NCBI GenBank assembly: GCA_036381125.1
Contig: DASVDK010000334.1
Coordinates: 1-5,561 of the forward strand
DNA from: DASVDK01 sp036381125 [NCBI: Thermodesulfobacteriota bacterium]
GTDB taxonomy: Bacteria; DASVDK01
Reading direction: 5' to 3'
DNA: 5,561 nt
The notes beneath the pieces were generated by a model that saw only the letters and a list, made by a program, of their open reading frames with translations, was not told the origin of the DNA and ran no database searches. Below, one piece after another: positions 2,007 to 5,491 of this stretch (within the stretch, counting starts at the first letter, position 1; every line of letters starts with the position of its first letter). Position numbers and translations under genes: made by a program.

Positions 2007-2861
2007 GTGAGCATCGCCGTCCGACGCCGCTTCGCCGCACTGGCGGCGCGTCCCGACGCGGAGATCGATCTCGTCGAGGCGGCGCTCCTGGTCGCCGCCG
2101 AAGAGTACACGGACCTCGACGTCCGCCACTACCGTCGAGTCCTCGACCGGCTCTGCGACGGCGCCCGCATGCGCGTCGGCGAGGCGGCGATCGGCGCACG
2201 CGGCGGGCTCGGGCCCTGCGAGGTCGTCGGCGCCCTCAACCGGTACCTCTTCGAGGAGTGCGGCTTTCGCGGCAACCGCGAGGCCTACTACGACCCGCGC
2301 AACTCCTTCCTGAACGAGGTCCTCGACCGCCGTCTCGGCATCCCCATCAGCCTCTCGCTGGTCTATATCGAGGTGGGGCGCCGGGCGGGGCTTCCGCTGG
2401 TCGGCATCGGCTTCCCGGGACACTTCCTCGTCGGCTGCGACGCGCCCGAGGGTCGGCTCCTCATCGACCCCTTCGACGGCGGCAAGCTCCTCACCGAGTT
2501 CGACTGCATCGCCATCCTCACGCGCCTGCACGGCCGGCCGGTCCCGCTCGCCCGCCACTACCTCGCGCCGATCGGGCCGCGCGCCTTCCTCGTCCGGATG
2601 CTGGCCAACCTCAAGTCGATCTACCTCGAGCGCGAGGACTACTGCCGCGCCCTCGCGGCGGCCGAGCGCATCCTCCTGCTCACGCCCGACGCCGCGGAGG
2701 AGCGGCGCGACCGCGGTCTCATCCACCTCAAGCTCCAGGCCTTCTCCCTCGCAGCCTCGGATCTCGAGGCTTATCTCCAGGCTCGCCGCGAGGCGCAGGA
2801 CCGCGACCAGGTCACCCGATACCTCACGACCGTCCGGCAGATCCTGGCCCGCCTGAATTAG
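2007..2861 (+). CDS. SirB1-family transglutaminase-like protein with C-terminal TPR-like helices
   Basis: The 284-residue protein matches the SirB1/YchA family (transglutaminase-like core followed by TPR-type helices), and its size is close to that of E. coli YchA. The family signature runs YYDPRNSFLNEVLDRRLGIP (residues 94-113), ISLSLVYIEVGRRAGLPL (114-131), GFPGHFLV with H139, and LIDPFDGG with D154. H139 and D154 fit the His and Asp of a transglutaminase-type triad. The position where a nucleophilic Cys would be expected is Ser-rich (S115, S117), as is usual in this family, so protease or transglutaminase activity should not be assumed. Residues ~190-284 form paired helices (ANLKSIYLEREDYCRALAAAERILLLTPD) typical of TPR repeats that bind partner proteins. 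GTG at 2007 is preceded by AGGAAGG (1996-2002) 4 nt upstream. There is no signal peptide, so it is likely cytoplasmic. It appears to be transcribed alone. Confidence 0.9.
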   Translation: MSIAVRRRFAALAARPDAEIDLVEAALLVAAEEYTDLDVRHYRRVLDRLCDGARMRVGEAAIGARGGLGPCEVVGALNRYLFEECGFRGNREAYYDPRNSFLNEVLDRRLGIPISLSLVYIEVGRRAGLPLVGIGFPGHFLVGCDAPEGRLLIDPFDGGKLLTEFDCIAILTRLHGRPVPLARHYLAPIGPRAFLVRMLANLKSIYLEREDYCRALAAAERILLLTPDAAEERRDRGLIHLKLQAFSLAASDLEAYLQARREAQDRDQVTRYLTTVRQILARLN

Positions 2862-2868
2862 CGAGCCG

Positions 2869-2886
2869 CGGCGCGCACCTGCGCCG
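2869..2886 (+). terminator. Short GC hairpin after the SirB1-family gene
   Basis: CGGCGC (2869-2874) pairs with GCGCCG (2881-2886) across a 6-nt loop, starting 7 nt after the stop codon. No U-run follows, so it would be a weak or Rho-assisted terminator at best. Confidence 0.25.
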
Positions 2887-2921
2887 GCCGGTCCCTCGTC
2901 GGAGCGGCAACCGCCTTCTCC

Positions 2922-2949
2922 TTGTAAATCGCCCACTTGGCGGTAGCAT
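2922..2949 (+). promoter_or_regulatory. Candidate promoter of the two-gene operon
   Basis: TTGTAA (2922-2927) and TAGCAT (2944-2949) are separated by 16 bp, each matching the sigma-70 consensus at 4 of 6 bases. They lie in the most AT-rich part of the 205-bp gap. Transcription from here would give a leader of roughly 110 nt that includes the hairpin at 3020-3038. Confidence 0.4.
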
Positions 2950-3019
2950 TTCCCTGCCGGACTGCTCATTCGAGCCCTATGGCGCGAGGCGTCGGTCCGG
3001 ATTGCGACGAACGAGCTGA

Positions 3020-3038
3020 CCGCCCGGGGATCGGGCGG
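3020..3038 (+). promoter_or_regulatory. Leader hairpin upstream of the annealing-protein candidate
   Basis: CCGCCCG (3020-3026) pairs perfectly with CGGGCGG (3032-3038) around the loop GGGAT. It ends 14 nt before the GAGAAAGG ribosome-binding sequence (3053-3060). With no U-run it is unlikely to be a simple terminator. It could be a structured leader, an operator or chance pairing in GC-rich DNA. Confidence 0.35.
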
Positions 3039-3066
3039 CCGTGTACAGACACGAGAAAGGCACGCG

Positions 3067-3717
3067 ATGGCAGACAAGGCGCAGGCGAACGGGCACGAGG
3101 CGAGCGTCAAGCCGGAGTTCGTGGTGAACCTCCGCGGGAAGGAGTTCGTCCTCTACGCGGGCGTGCTCGACCTGGCACACCAGAAGGGGATTCGCCGGCT
3201 GGAGACCGAGGTGGTGCAGCTCCCCTCGGACCAGAACGGCCGGGAGTGCGTGGTCAGGGCGACGCTCGAGCTCGAGGGGGGCCGGATCTTCACCGACTAC
3301 GGCGACGCCAACCCGACGAACGTCAATCGCCCGATCGCGCAGCACCTCATCCGGATGGCGAGCACCCGCGCGAAGGCGCGCGTGCTGCGCGACGCGACCA
3401 ACATCGGCCTCACGGCACTCGAGGAACTGGGCAGCCTCGAGGACGACGAGCCGGCGAGCCCGCCCCTCCCCCGGGCAGCCCAGGCGGAGGGTGCGCGGCC
3501 GAGCCGTGAGCCGCGCGGCACGCGCGGCGGCGCCGACTCGCCGCGGGGGATCGCCGTCACCGACGCGCAGCTCAGGGCCATCCGGTCGATCGCGCGATCG
3601 AAGGGCATGACGCCGCAGGCGGTGGAGGACTTCGCCCGGCGCCAGTTCAACGCGCCGCTCGAGTCGCTCAACATCGACGAGGCCTCGCACATCATCAAGG
3701 AGCTGCAGCGTGTATAG
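3067..3717 (+). CDS. Candidate Rad52-superfamily single-strand-annealing-like protein
   Basis: The 216-residue protein has two parts. Residues ~16-122 form a compact alpha/beta domain: FVVNLRGKEFVLYAGVLDLA, then VVQLPSDQNGRECVVRATLEL, then GRIFTDYGDANPTNVNRPIA, then a basic helix LIRMASTRAKARVLRDATNIG and LTALEELG. The NP..N turn before an RMA.TRA..R.LR.A.N.G helix recalls the 'TRA..RAL' helix of Rad52/DdrA-type annealing proteins; this link is by pattern only. An acidic, Pro/Arg-rich linker (123-160) leads to a ~50-residue module, VTDAQLRAIRSIARSKGMTP to LNIDEASHIIKELQ, resembling C-terminal modules I recall on phage recombination proteins. If correct, it would coat single-stranded DNA and anneal strands in recombination or repair. 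The ATG at 3067 follows GAGAAAGG (3053-3060) with a 6-nt gap. Its stop overlaps the next gene by 8 bp, indicating translational coupling. No exonuclease or phage gene is nearby. It could instead be an uncharacterised chromosomal family. Confidence 0.55.
   Translation: MADKAQANGHEASVKPEFVVNLRGKEFVLYAGVLDLAHQKGIRRLETEVVQLPSDQNGRECVVRATLELEGGRIFTDYGDANPTNVNRPIAQHLIRMASTRAKARVLRDATNIGLTALEELGSLEDDEPASPPLPRAAQAEGARPSREPRGTRGGADSPRGIAVTDAQLRAIRSIARSKGMTPQAVEDFARRQFNAPLESLNIDEASHIIKELQRV
3697..3712 (+). promoter_or_regulatory. Ribosome binding site and GTG start of the small HTH gene
   Basis: AAGGAG at 3697-3702 stands 7 nt before GTG at 3710, an ideal spacing. It lies inside the end of the preceding gene, whose stop is at 3715-3717. 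This fixes the unusual GTG start and the 8-bp overlap, since there is no other good in-frame start ahead of the helix-turn-helix. Confidence 0.75.
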
Positions 3718-4159
3718 TACGGGTCGCGAGGCGGAGGGGGGCGGCGCCCCCCTCCGGCCGCGCCTCACGAAGCGGGCGCGCGCGCTCGCGGCCTGGGACG
3801 CGGGCGAGCGCGACATCGTGCGCATCGCCCGCGAGGTCGAGAGCCGGCCGTCCTACGTGGCGCGCGTCCTCGCCGACACGGGCCGCCTCACCGGCTACTA
3901 CGACCTCTACAGCCGCACCGGCACGCCGGTGAACGTCTACGGCGAGCGGTTCGCCGGCGTCCTCGCCTTCCGCGACGCCGAGGCGGCGCGCGCGTCGGTC
4001 GAGCGGATCGACCGGCTCTACCACGAGTACGAGGCGGCCGGGGACCGCGCGGGCCAGCACCACGCCCAGGTCGTCGCCCTCGTCGGCCGCAATCGCGCCC
4101 GCTGGGCCGACAAGCCGGAGGCCGCGGCCGTCTTCCACCACTGGCTCATGACGCACTGA
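3710..4159 (+). CDS. Small helix-turn-helix protein of unknown family, coupled to the annealing-protein candidate
   Basis: The 149-residue protein begins with a Gly-rich stretch encoded by a strong hairpin (residues 8-16). Residues ~20-57 form a likely trihelical DNA-binding unit: LTKRARALAAWDAGERD, IVRIAREV, then the recognition helix RPSYVARVLADTG. This resembles the helix-turn-helix of resolvase- or sigma-4-like proteins that step through A..W..G..D...IA..... The remainder (60-149) has no family I recognise: YYDLYSRTGTPVNVYGERFA, then an amphipathic helix AEAARASVERIDRLYHEYEAA, then GDRAGQHHAQVVALVGRNRA and a Trp-containing tail. There is no membrane segment, nuclease motif or ATP-binding motif. 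It overlaps the upstream gene by 8 bp, so the two products are probably made together and may act together. It could be the operon's repressor or a DNA-targeting partner of the annealing protein; both are inference. Confidence 0.75.
   Translation: MYSTGREAEGGGAPLRPRLTKRARALAAWDAGERDIVRIAREVESRPSYVARVLADTGRLTGYYDLYSRTGTPVNVYGERFAGVLAFRDAEAARASVERIDRLYHEYEAAGDRAGQHHAQVVALVGRNRARWADKPEAAAVFHHWLMTH
3732..3756 (+). repeat. Perfect 11-bp hairpin inside the start of the HTH gene
   Basis: CGGAGGGGGGC (3732-3742) is the exact reverse complement of GCCCCCCTCCG (3746-3756), with loop GGC. It begins 22 nt after the first base of the GTG start. In the mRNA it would be a very stable stem just downstream of the initiation site and could slow or gate translation; as DNA it is a palindrome that a dimer could bind. 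The same core recurs downstream of this gene at 4208-4219 and 4310-4321. Confidence 0.7.
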
Positions 4160-4169
4160 CAGCCTTGGA

Positions 4170-4223
4170 GTCAGGAGGGGGACTCCGGGCCGGCATCCGC
4201 CGGCCCTCCGCCCCCCTCCTGAC
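4170..4223. terminator. Large stem-loop after the HTH gene, likely terminator
   Basis: GTCAGGAGGGGG (4170-4181) pairs perfectly with CCCCCTCCTGAC (4212-4223). Pairing resumes at GGGCCGG (4187-4193) with CCGGCCC (4200-4206), leaving loop CATCCG (4194-4199). The whole structure is 54 nt and starts 11 nt after the stop. No U-run follows. It lies between convergent genes, so it may stop transcription from either side. Confidence 0.55.
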
Positions 4224-4325
4224 CACCTCCCCGTTACGTCACTCGCTCCGGGCGGAGTGAATCCGCCCTCCGCTCCAGACGGCCCCCCGGTGTCTCCGTC
4301 ACCGGCCCTCCGCCCCCCTCCTGAC
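4200..4325 (+). repeat. 24-bp perfect direct repeat, 102 bp apart
   Basis: Positions 4200-4223 and 4302-4325 are identical over 24 bp; the core is CCGCCCCCCTCC. A shortened, degenerate relative lies between them at 4263-4280 (CCGCCCTCCGCTCCAGAC). Copy 1 is the 3' arm of the large stem-loop. Copy 2 lacks the matching 5' arm, although the short inverted repeat CCGGTG/CACCGG (4287-4292 and 4300-4305) sits across its left edge. Confidence 0.7.
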
Positions 4326-4425
4326 ACGTCGCCAGCGGGCACGGCGACTCGCGCCGCGAGAGCGGCGCAACCTCCCCGGCATGTCGATCGCTCCGGCCGG
4401 GCGAAGCCGGCCTCCGATTCGGAGG
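4250..4425. other. Cluster of short hairpins between convergent genes
   Basis: Several further perfect stems are visible: GGGCGGA/TCCGCCC (4250-4256, 4262-4268), GTCGCC/GGCGAC (4328-4333, 4343-4348), CTCGC/GCGAG (4348-4352, 4356-4360), GGCCGG/CCGGCC (4395-4400, 4407-4412) and CCTCCG/CGGAGG (4411-4416, 4420-4425). The last begins 11 nt past the stop of the leftward REC-HD-GYP gene and could terminate it. No coding sequence is evident in 4160-4435. Confidence 0.5.
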
Positions 4426-4435
4426 GAGCCGCGTC

Positions 4436-5491
4436 TCAATCGGGATCGGGTATGACGTCGGGCGGGAGGGCGAGGAAGGCGTCGACGACGCGCGGGTCGA
4501 ACTCGGTGCCGGCGGCCGCGCGCAGGGCGGCGCGGGCCGTGGCAGGGTCGAGGCGCGTGGCGCCGCGGCGGCCGGCGGTGAGCCGGTCGTAGGCGGCCGC
4601 CACGGCGAAGATGCGGGCCCCGAGCGGGATCGCCTCCCCCTCGAGCCCTCGGGGATGGCCGCTCCCGTCGTATCGCTCGGCCTGCGAGAAGACGATTGCC
4701 GCGGCCGGCCGGAGGAACGCGATCCGCGAGAGCAGCTCGTAGCCCTTGCGCGGGCTCTCGCGGATGAGCGCCGCCTCCTCCGGCGTGTGGTCCGAGCGGG
4801 CGAGGATGCCGTCCGGGATCGCGATGGTGCCGATGTCGTGCAGCAGGGCGGCCCGCCCGAGCGCGTCGAGCTCCGCCTCGGCGAGTCCCATCTCCCTGCC
4901 GATCGCCAGCGCGATGGCCGCCACCCGATCGGCGTGGTGCGGCGAGGAGCTGTCGCGGTAGGAGAGCGCGGCGCCGAGCGCCTTGAGCGTCGCGTCGTAG
5001 GTGGCCCGGATCTCGGCGAGCGCCCTGGCGTGCGCGCGCGTCTGGGCCTCCACCATCGCCTCCAGGCGCTCCCGGTAGGCGCGGTTCTGCACGACGACCT
5101 GCCGCCGGTCGAGCGCCCGACGGACGGCGAACGAGACCTGGTCGAGGTTGAACGGCTTGAGGATGTAGTCCGCCGCGCCGGCCTTGAGCGCGTCGACGGC
5201 CGTCTGGAGGGTGGCGACCGCCGTGATCATGATGACGGCGAGGTCGGGGTCGAACCCGCGCGCCCAGTCGAGCAGCTCGAGCCCCGTCTCGTGCGGCATC
5301 TGGATGTCGGCCAGCAGCGCCTCGGCCCCCCGGCGCTCGAGCAGCGCCCGCGCCTCGGACGCGCTCGACGCGCTCGCCACGTCGTAGCCCTCCCGGGTGA
5401 GGCGGCGCTGGAGGATGTCGAGGATGACCGGCTCGTCGTCCACGACGACGAGCCGGGCGCGTGGCTCGGGGGTCTGCGACGGGCTGGGCAA
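4436..5491 (-). CDS. Response regulator with REC and degenerate HD-GYP domain
   Basis: The 351-residue protein has an N-terminal receiver domain (residues ~13-128) with acidic D18-D19 (VVVDDE), phospho-acceptor D62 (LADIQMP), T90 and K112 (LKPF), all intact. A helical, probably coiled-coil linker (~129-170) leads to an HD-GYP domain (~171-330). HD-GYP proteins of the RpfG type hydrolyse c-di-GMP at a metal centre. Here H186 (HADRV) and H218-D219 (LLHDIG) remain. The Lys after DIG is T222, the His of the HPxxG element is S246 (ESPRKG), the HH pair is Q270-A271 (SQAERYDGSG), GYP reads GHP, and the Asp of AVAD is A299. It is therefore probably a poor or inactive phosphodiesterase. The start is TTG at 5491, preceded by GAGGAGG (5503-5509). 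The same frame stays open to the right edge, but that stretch has many A/T third positions, unlike the gene. It converges on the HTH gene. Confidence 0.88.
   Translation of the reverse strand: MPSPSQTPEPRARLVVVDDEPVILDILQRRLTREGYDVASASSASEARALLERRGAEALLADIQMPHETGLELLDWARGFDPDLAVIMITAVATLQTAVDALKAGAADYILKPFNLDQVSFAVRRALDRRQVVVQNRAYRERLEAMVEAQTRAHARALAEIRATYDATLKALGAALSYRDSSSPHHADRVAAIALAIGREMGLAEAELDALGRAALLHDIGTIAIPDGILARSDHTPEEAALIRESPRKGYELLSRIAFLRPAAAIVFSQAERYDGSGHPRGLEGEAIPLGARIFAVAAAYDRLTAGRRGATRLDPATARAALRAAAGTEFDPRVVDAFLALPPDVIPDPD

What the first reader, a model, noticed from the sequence alone, without database searches (positions are those of the whole stretch)
3067..4159. Two-gene operon pairing an annealing-protein-like gene with an unknown HTH protein
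The two genes overlap by 8 bp with an ideal ribosome site inside the first gene, so they are almost certainly co-produced. The first has a Rad52/DdrA-like basic helix and a C-terminal module like those on phage recombination proteins; the second is a helix-turn-helix protein with a C-terminal half I cannot assign. No exonuclease, integrase or structural phage gene is present, so this is not an obvious prophage recombination cassette. A conserved pair of this type could be an undescribed DNA repair, recombination or defence unit.
Basis: partly seen in the sequence, partly recalled or inferred. Interest (0 to 1): 0.7.

Follow-up and report, generated by a model that had tools for sequence, protein, structure and literature searches.

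The report
DNA-strand-annealing protein with unrelated HTH-like partner
The first gene very probably makes a protein that pairs up matching single DNA strands, a relative of human RAD52 and of phage lambda's recombination protein, from a widespread but unnamed family; the second gene overlaps it, but the two were not found together elsewhere, so this looks like a known kind of DNA-handling protein in an unusual setting, not a shown new two-gene system.

Summary
The gene facts hold: ORF1 3067-3717 (216 aa) and ORF2 3710-4159 (149 aa) overlap by 8 bp, with AAGGAG 7 nt before ORF2's GTG.

ORF1 is very probably a single-strand annealing protein (SSAP). Its model (pLDDT 87) has the annealase core; the best solved match is human RAD52, and its C-terminal module resembles the lambda Red-beta C-terminal domain. 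Profile comparison with Red-beta gives E 2.4e-4; 0 of 100 column shuffles score as high. The window protein matches no Pfam or NCBIfam model. In its clade 11 of 12 relatives have a PD-(D/E)XK nuclease next door, often with SSB and UvrD; none of these was found in the window.

ORF2 is rare. No relative was found in 119 loci with an ORF1 homologue; its one clear homologue is in a genome without detectable ORF1. The 'conserved pair' idea is unsupported, though the window's own lineage could not be searched.

Side finding: the ORF1 family is in 37 of 39 genomes of the Rubrobacter family; R. radiotolerans is reported to lack ddrA-ddrD.

Verdict: an unnamed new member of a known kind.

The parts
3054..3060 (+). 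likely ribosome-binding site of ORF1 (AGAAAGG)
   Evidence: read from sequence
3067..3717 (+). ORF1, 216 aa: Rad52/RecT-superfamily single-strand annealing protein of an unnamed family (matches PHROG 22961)
   Evidence: ORF; fold; profile comparison with Red-beta; phrog_22961 E 2.7e-11
3112..3432 (+). ORF1 residues about 16-122: annealase core; helix 91-111 is the conserved basic helix
3544..3714 (+). ORF1 residues 160-216: three-helix C-terminal module resembling the Red-beta C-terminal domain (solved in complex with an SSB tail peptide and with lambda exonuclease)
   Evidence: 8tg7_A Z 7.8 rmsd 1.7 over 57; 8tfu_A Z 7.7; 6m9k_D Z 7.5
3697..3702 (+). AAGGAG inside ORF1, likely ribosome-binding site of ORF2
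3710..4159 (+). ORF2, 149 aa: HTH-like N-terminal half (inferred), C-terminal half weakly DUF4385-like
   Evidence: homologue in G073; DUF4385 18 bits against cut-off 27, residues 77-131
4170..4223 (+). strong hairpin just after ORF2 (25-nt arms, 84% complementary, 4 nt between them; no T-run found by the terminator scan); possible transcript end
   Evidence: (186-nt stretch z -3.26, 0 of 200 shuffles fold as well)

Best explanation
[quoted passage not shown] Oligomers bind single-stranded DNA through the beta-sheet and the basic helix 91-111 and pair it with a complementary strand; the C-terminal three-helix module docks the protein to SSB and, in relatives, perhaps to a partner exonuclease. 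Shown here by computation: the fold, the remote kinship, the gene company of relatives. Inferred: oligomers, annealing activity, docking. ORF2 is probably made from the same message by coupled translation and is most likely a small DNA-binding accessory or regulator that stands, in this lineage, where relatives carry a PD-(D/E)XK nuclease; that role is a guess (about 0.35). The pair as such is not a conserved unit in the data examined.
For: Model with pLDDT 87.4 and the order E19-22 E25-28 H30-39 E42-51 E61-69 E74-81 H91-111. Foldseek against PDB: 6 matches at E <= 0.001, all human RAD52; VIA-align: RAD52 8rjw_A Z 9.0 over 94 residues, yeast Mgm101 Z 7.2, phage 80alpha Sak Z 7.1, Red-beta C-terminal domain Z 7.8 at 1.7 A over 57. 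Viral library: 61 matches at E <= 0.001; most of the 50 listed have no name or are uncharacterised; those with a name are RecT, Erf (essential recombination function), SSAP or Rad52-type, plus one called exodeoxyribonuclease 8/PDDEXK-like. Profile-profile with nine Red-beta/RecT sequences: E 2.4e-4 over 93 columns, putting ORF1's conserved helix on Red-beta's RMLRHKAMIQCAR; in the same comparison rerun as a script the score is 35.8, the best of 100 column-shuffled profiles 28.2 and the reversed profile 11.3. Context: PD-(D/E)XK nuclease next door in 15 of 74 genome loci, SSB within 1.5 kb in 16 of 74 (Pfam names of examples), UvrD helicase within 3.5 kb in 10 of 74 (Pfam). In the window's clade of 13 (SH-aLRT 96) 11 of the 12 others have the nuclease. 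Public phage records already call two relatives 'RecT-like DNA single-strand annealing protein' and 'DNA repair and recombination protein'.
Against: No Pfam or NCBIfam model matches the window protein and no solved sequence matches the family profile (weak unrelated hits only). TM-scores to RAD52 are low (0.22-0.33 by query) and double-stranded-RNA-binding domains score almost as high (Z 8.1). Z under 8, or under about 13 for helical bundles, can be a common arrangement (note), which touches the C-terminal match. The hhalign probability is only 43%, and comparison with the single Sak sequence gave nothing. 51 of 74 genome loci and all 37 viral loci show neither nuclease nor SSB within 1.5 kb by the profiles used. 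No biochemistry exists here.
Confidence: 0.87

Rival explanations
1. ORF1-ORF2 is a conserved but lineage-limited repair or recombination unit in the window's own phylum, in which ORF2 replaces the nuclease as the working partner of the annealing protein.
For: Tight coupling (8-bp overlap, internal ribosome site); ORF2 sits where relatives carry the nuclease; the window's own lineage could not be sampled.
Against: No ORF2 relative found in the 119 loci with an ORF1 homologue, and in the genome searches only one clear homologue, G073, a genome that lacks a detectable ORF1.
Confidence: 0.25
2. The pair is a remnant of a phage or mobile-element recombination module, with its nuclease lost.
For: The family occurs in phages and in plasmids beside replication-type genes; nuclease, SSB and UvrD accompany most of the window's clade.
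Against: The genes beside the pair are a transglutaminase-like/TPR protein, two response-regulator proteins (one with an HD domain) and a tRNA, with no mobile gene seen; both frames are intact and GC is like the neighbours'.
Confidence: 0.25
3. ORF1 is a double-stranded-RNA-binding-like protein rather than an annealing protein.
For: dsRNA-binding domains reach Z 8.1.
Against: RAD52 rows align over 82-109 residues and most begin at residues 5-9; most dsRNA-binding rows align over 62-83 (one over 88 at rmsd 8.4). Profile match to Red-beta; nuclease/SSB/UvrD company of relatives.
Confidence: 0.04
4. The pair is an anti-phage defence unit.
Against: No PADLOC model at E <= 1; many relatives keep company with recombination or replication-type genes.
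Confidence: 0.04

Closest known systems
Red-beta (phage lambda bet) and the RecT family
   Same: profile-profile match over the annealase core, C-terminal three-helix module like Red-beta's C-terminal domain, nuclease gene next door in the window's clade
   Different: shorter (216 aa against 261), no match of the window protein to Pfam RecT, no nuclease found beside the window copy
Human RAD52 / yeast Mgm101
   Same: RAD52 is the best solved structure for the core, Mgm101 lower
   Different: about 11-21% identity, bacterial, Red-beta-like C-terminal module
Haloferax tailed virus 1 gp50 ('RecT-like DNA single-strand annealing protein') and PHROG 22961
   Same: sequence relatives of ORF1 (36.9% over residues 12-121; E 2.7e-11)
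   Different: viral; the PHROG has no function assigned; the HFTV1 name is as deposited, its basis was not seen
SSB - SSAP - PD-(D/E)XK - UvrD cassettes (for example L010, L017, L047)
   Same: in the same clade as ORF1
   Different: the window has ORF2 in place of the nuclease; no SSB or UvrD found in it
DUF4385 (PF14328)
   Same: weak match to ORF2's C-terminal half (E 0.0034), weaker still (E 0.086) in its G073 homologue
   Different: below the curated score; ORF2 has an extra HTH-like N-terminal half

Membership tests
Rad52/RecT single-strand annealing superfamily | beta-beta-alpha-beta-beta-beta-alpha core with the solved RAD52-type fold | tested here: met
   dsRNA-binding domains score nearly as high
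Rad52/RecT single-strand annealing superfamily | detectable sequence-profile kinship with a characterised member (Red-beta) | tested here: met
   E 2.4e-4 over 93 columns, 0 of 100 shuffles as good; hhalign probability only 43%
Rad52/RecT single-strand annealing superfamily | anneals complementary single-stranded DNA | not testable with these tools
   needs purified protein
RecT (PF03837), Rad52_Rad22 (PF04098), ERF, SSAP_Sak as curated Pfam families | match of the window protein to a family model | tested here: not met
   0 families at E <= 1; of 47 family members one matched Rad52_Rad22 (E 1.8e-4) and one RecT (E 0.021), and one NCBIfam rad52 (E 0.0077)
Red-beta-type C-terminal domain | three-helix domain that binds the SSB tail and exonuclease | tested here: inconclusive
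   Z 7.5-7.8, rmsd 1.6-1.8 A over 56-58 residues, but small helical domains can give such Z values by common arrangement; binding untested
lambda Red-like two-gene recombinase | exonuclease gene beside the SSAP gene | tested here: not met
   window ORFs; met in 11 of 12 clade relatives
DdrA (Deinococcus) | sequence or fold kinship with DdrA itself | not tested
DUF4385 (ORF2) | score at or above the curated cut-off | tested here: not met
   18 bits against 27
known anti-phage systems | match to a PADLOC model | tested here: not met
   none for ORF1 or ORF2 at E <= 1

The most novel reading that the evidence does not exclude
ORF1 belongs to a host-owned (not phage-borne) branch of annealing proteins that serves chromosome repair: near-universal in the Rubrobacter family, where one copy sits in a DnaD-like - DnaC-like ATPase - SSAP - metallo-beta-lactamase (- SSB) locus. 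It would give these lineages a RecA-independent annealing route that stands in for the missing DdrA/DdrB, with ORF2 as a lineage-specific DNA-binding partner in the window's organism.
Probability: 0.25. Interest if true: 0.7.

Novelty: new member of a known kind. Interest (0 to 1): 0.42.

Why it matters
Annealing proteins are the working part of recombineering tools and are known mostly from phages (recalled). The window protein matches no Pfam or NCBIfam model, and its 47-member alignment gives only scattered weak matches there. The family spans several phyla, sits in an SSB-SSAP-nuclease-UvrD cassette in one branch, and is in 37 of 39 genomes of the Rubrobacter family. R. radiotolerans RSPS-4 is reported to lack ddrA-ddrD (PMC4148983, passages seen). 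If active, the family offers new recombineering enzymes and a testable candidate for annealing-based repair there.

Tried and rejected
Close-relative scans with ORF1 alone found nothing in genome or viral contigs; an alignment with phage and plasmid hits did. ORF2 alone found nothing in phages, plasmids or viral contigs, nor did ORF2 with its G073 homologue in viral contigs. ORF2 hits below the G073 one are partial or weak: two of the three genomes at E <= 0.001 (3.3e-4, 8.4e-4), and 9 of 26 genomes at E <= 1 (best 0.008) (alignments). ORF2's structure model is too poor to search. Sak as a single sequence gave no profile match; lambda Red-beta as a single sequence gave P 0.0004 over 38 columns. 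As a negative control the nuclease alignment A6 gave no match to A3. Two viral scans for Red-beta and Sak relatives listed 80 near-identical copies each and were not used. A P22 stretch was fetched for Erf but did not contain it. Promoter and terminator scans of 2860-4440 found nothing.

Papers: no paper in the library holds Rubrobacter + single-strand annealing + Rad52 or HFTV1 + annealing protein. Of 61 papers with two of Rubrobacter/DnaD/helicase loader and 221 with two of Rubrobacter/RecT/annealing protein, only the 6 listed each were seen, none on a Rubrobacter SSAP. Two papers mention DUF4385 (listing only). Searches were listings; of these papers I opened PMC11783212 and PMC8093625 (abstract, outline, named sections) and PMC4148983 (passages). 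That is not proof that the family is unpublished.

Limits: the ORF2 genome searches are drawn samples that overlap one another, and the tool warns that an empty answer shows nothing without a known positive. The nuclease, SSB and UvrD counts use profiles seeded from loci of the same set, so divergent partners could be missed, and some loci are short contigs. The tree is a quick one without bootstrap and with long branches; of 120 extracted rows those under 100 or over 400 aa, one masked row and nine named duplicates or near-duplicates were left out, giving 104 rows plus the window. The fold alignment used 46 chosen relatives.

Full report
1. The observation. ORF1 (3067-3717, 216 aa) and ORF2 (3710-4159, 149 aa) are on the plus strand and overlap by 8 bp; AAGGAG at 3697-3702 stands seven bases before ORF2's GTG. 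This is the arrangement expected for coupled translation. Both look like real genes: ORF1 has relatives at 74 genome loci and 37 viral loci, a few of them the same sequence, and ORF2 has a homologue, 41% identical over 128 aa, in another genome. A strong hairpin (4170-4223) follows ORF2. The window's neighbours are ordinary: a transglutaminase-like/TPR protein, a response regulator, a response regulator with an HD domain and a tRNA-Arg. No whole genome is held for the window, so its organism and wider context are unknown; GC is 0.74.

2. What ORF1 is. The window protein matches no Pfam or NCBIfam family but matches PHROG 22961, of unknown function, at E 2.7e-11; 46 of 47 aligned family members match that PHROG. 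Translated searches found 8 phage records and 4 plasmid records; two phage relatives are annotated as recombination or annealing proteins. With a 47-row alignment AlphaFold2 gave pLDDT 87.4 and a beta-beta-alpha-beta-beta-beta-alpha core followed by a linker and three helices. In the PDB all six Foldseek matches at E <= 0.001 are human RAD52. The structural second look gave RAD52 Z 9.0, with Mgm101 (7.2) and Sak (7.1) lower, and for residues 160-216 the Red-beta C-terminal domain at 1.6-1.8 A. dsRNA-binding domains score almost as high (8.1), mostly over fewer residues. In the viral library 61 matches reach E <= 0.001; most of the 50 listed are unnamed or uncharacterised, and the named ones are RecT, Erf, SSAP and Rad52 kinds plus one exodeoxyribonuclease 8/PDDEXK-like entry.

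3. Sequence-level test. Nine Red-beta/RecT proteins from named phages (alignment) were compared with the ORF1 family: E 2.4e-4 over 93 columns, with the conserved helix of ORF1 placed on Red-beta's RMLRHKAMIQCAR helix. In a scripted rerun the score was 35.8; of 100 column-shuffled Red-beta profiles none reached it (best 28.2) and the reversed profile gave 11.3. The nuclease profile gave no match, nor did the single Sak sequence. This is remote but consistent kinship; hhalign's own probability is only 43%.

4. Company kept by relatives. A profile for PD-(D/E)XK nucleases hit 15 places in the 119 loci, all on the same strand beside the ORF1 homologue; 15 of 74 genome loci have it, 16 of 74 have SSB within 1.5 kb, 8 have both, 51 have neither, and none of 37 viral loci has either within 1.5 kb. 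Pfam names of examples: SSB PF00436 and PDDEXK_1 PF12705. UvrD-type helicases lie within 3.5 kb in 10 of 74. In a tree of 105 rows the window protein falls in a set of 13 (SH-aLRT 96, quick tree, no bootstrap). Of the other 12 members 11 have the nuclease and 8 SSB, and 10 UvrD. The exception for the nuclease is L009, the row nearest to the window. So the window carries a nuclease-cassette type of SSAP without the nuclease.

5. What ORF2 is, and whether the pair is conserved. ORF2's C-terminal half resembles DUF4385 below the cut-off, as does its G073 homologue, more weakly (E 0.086). An HTH in the N-terminal half is plausible from sequence but unsupported by any model, and the structure model is poor. 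tblastn with ORF2 found no relative in the 119 ORF1 loci (best E 0.23). In genome searches 3 of 188 genomes of one phylum matched at E <= 0.001, one of them clearly; a search of 57 genomes around that one found only itself; 0 of 2, 132, 201, 247 and 39 genomes elsewhere matched, sets that are samples and partly overlap earlier ones. The genome with the clear ORF2 homologue (G073) has no ORF1 homologue at E <= 1e-5, and its ORF2 stands among genes unrelated to those of the window.

6. Mechanism. ORF1: oligomeric annealing of single-stranded DNA, with the C-terminal module docking to SSB. Fold and kinship are computed here; activity, oligomers and docking are inferred from Rad52/Red-beta biology (partly recalled; abstracts and named sections of PMC11783212 and PMC8093625 seen). 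ORF2: co-made accessory or regulator, guessed.

7. Spread and a side finding. The family is in 37 of 39 genomes of the family of Rubrobacter marinus; 26 of the 39 have exactly two matches. R. marinus has copies on its chromosome and one on a plasmid; the replicon of most others is unknown. One kind of copy lies in a locus with a DnaB_2-type (DnaD-like) gene, a DnaC/IstB-like ATPase and a metallo-beta-lactamase gene (21 of 74 loci have all three within 3.5 kb), sometimes with SSB; another follows a MarR/HTH gene (18 of 74 loci). In the phylum of G010, which includes the genomes of loci labelled Chloroflexi, it is in 25 of 301 genomes, and in the phylum of G001 (labelled Desulfobacteraceae) in 8 of 395. 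R. radiotolerans RSPS-4 is reported to lack ddrA, ddrB, ddrC and ddrD (PMC4148983, passages seen); that strain was not searched here by name. Whether the Rubrobacter copies act in repair is unknown.

8. Verdict. A new, uncurated member of a known kind of protein, in an uncommon two-gene setting that is not shown to be a unit. Interest is moderate: the family and its Rubrobacter branch deserve a bench test; the pair itself does not yet.

Noticed in passing
L048, L026, L030, L042 and similar Rubrobacter loci; ORF1 family in 37 of 39 genomes of the Rubrobacter family; in 21 of 74 genome loci a copy lies with a DnaD-like gene, a DnaC/IstB-like ATPase and a metallo-beta-lactamase gene, sometimes with SSB: looks like a replication or restart locus with a built-in annealing protein.
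   Followed up: partly
L033, L063 and 16 other loci: A shorter kind of Rubrobacter copy directly follows a gene with a MarR/winged-HTH domain (L063:5315-5917), with an HATPase_c gene upstream of that in L063.
   Followed up: partly
L010, L012, L017, L047: Several nuclease-cassette relatives carry an extra N-terminal SWIM-like zinc-binding motif (Pfam SWIM in 2 of 47 members, best E 9.3e-4; the longer L017 frame gave no Pfam match at E <= 0.001); the start codons chosen for some rows may cut it off.
   Followed up: no
window 4170-4223 and 4302-4325: A 24-nt stretch of the hairpin after ORF2 is repeated exactly 102 bases further on; a similar GC-rich inverted stretch sits near ORF2's start (about 3731-3757, read by eye only).
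   Followed up: partly
L057, L065 (labelled Chloroflexi): ORF1 homologue followed by a DUF1800 gene in 2 of 74 genome loci.
   Followed up: no
L009: The row nearest to the window protein has no PDDEXK_1-type nuclease next door; an AAA ATPase gene and a CobT/VWA gene lie upstream of it.
   Followed up: no
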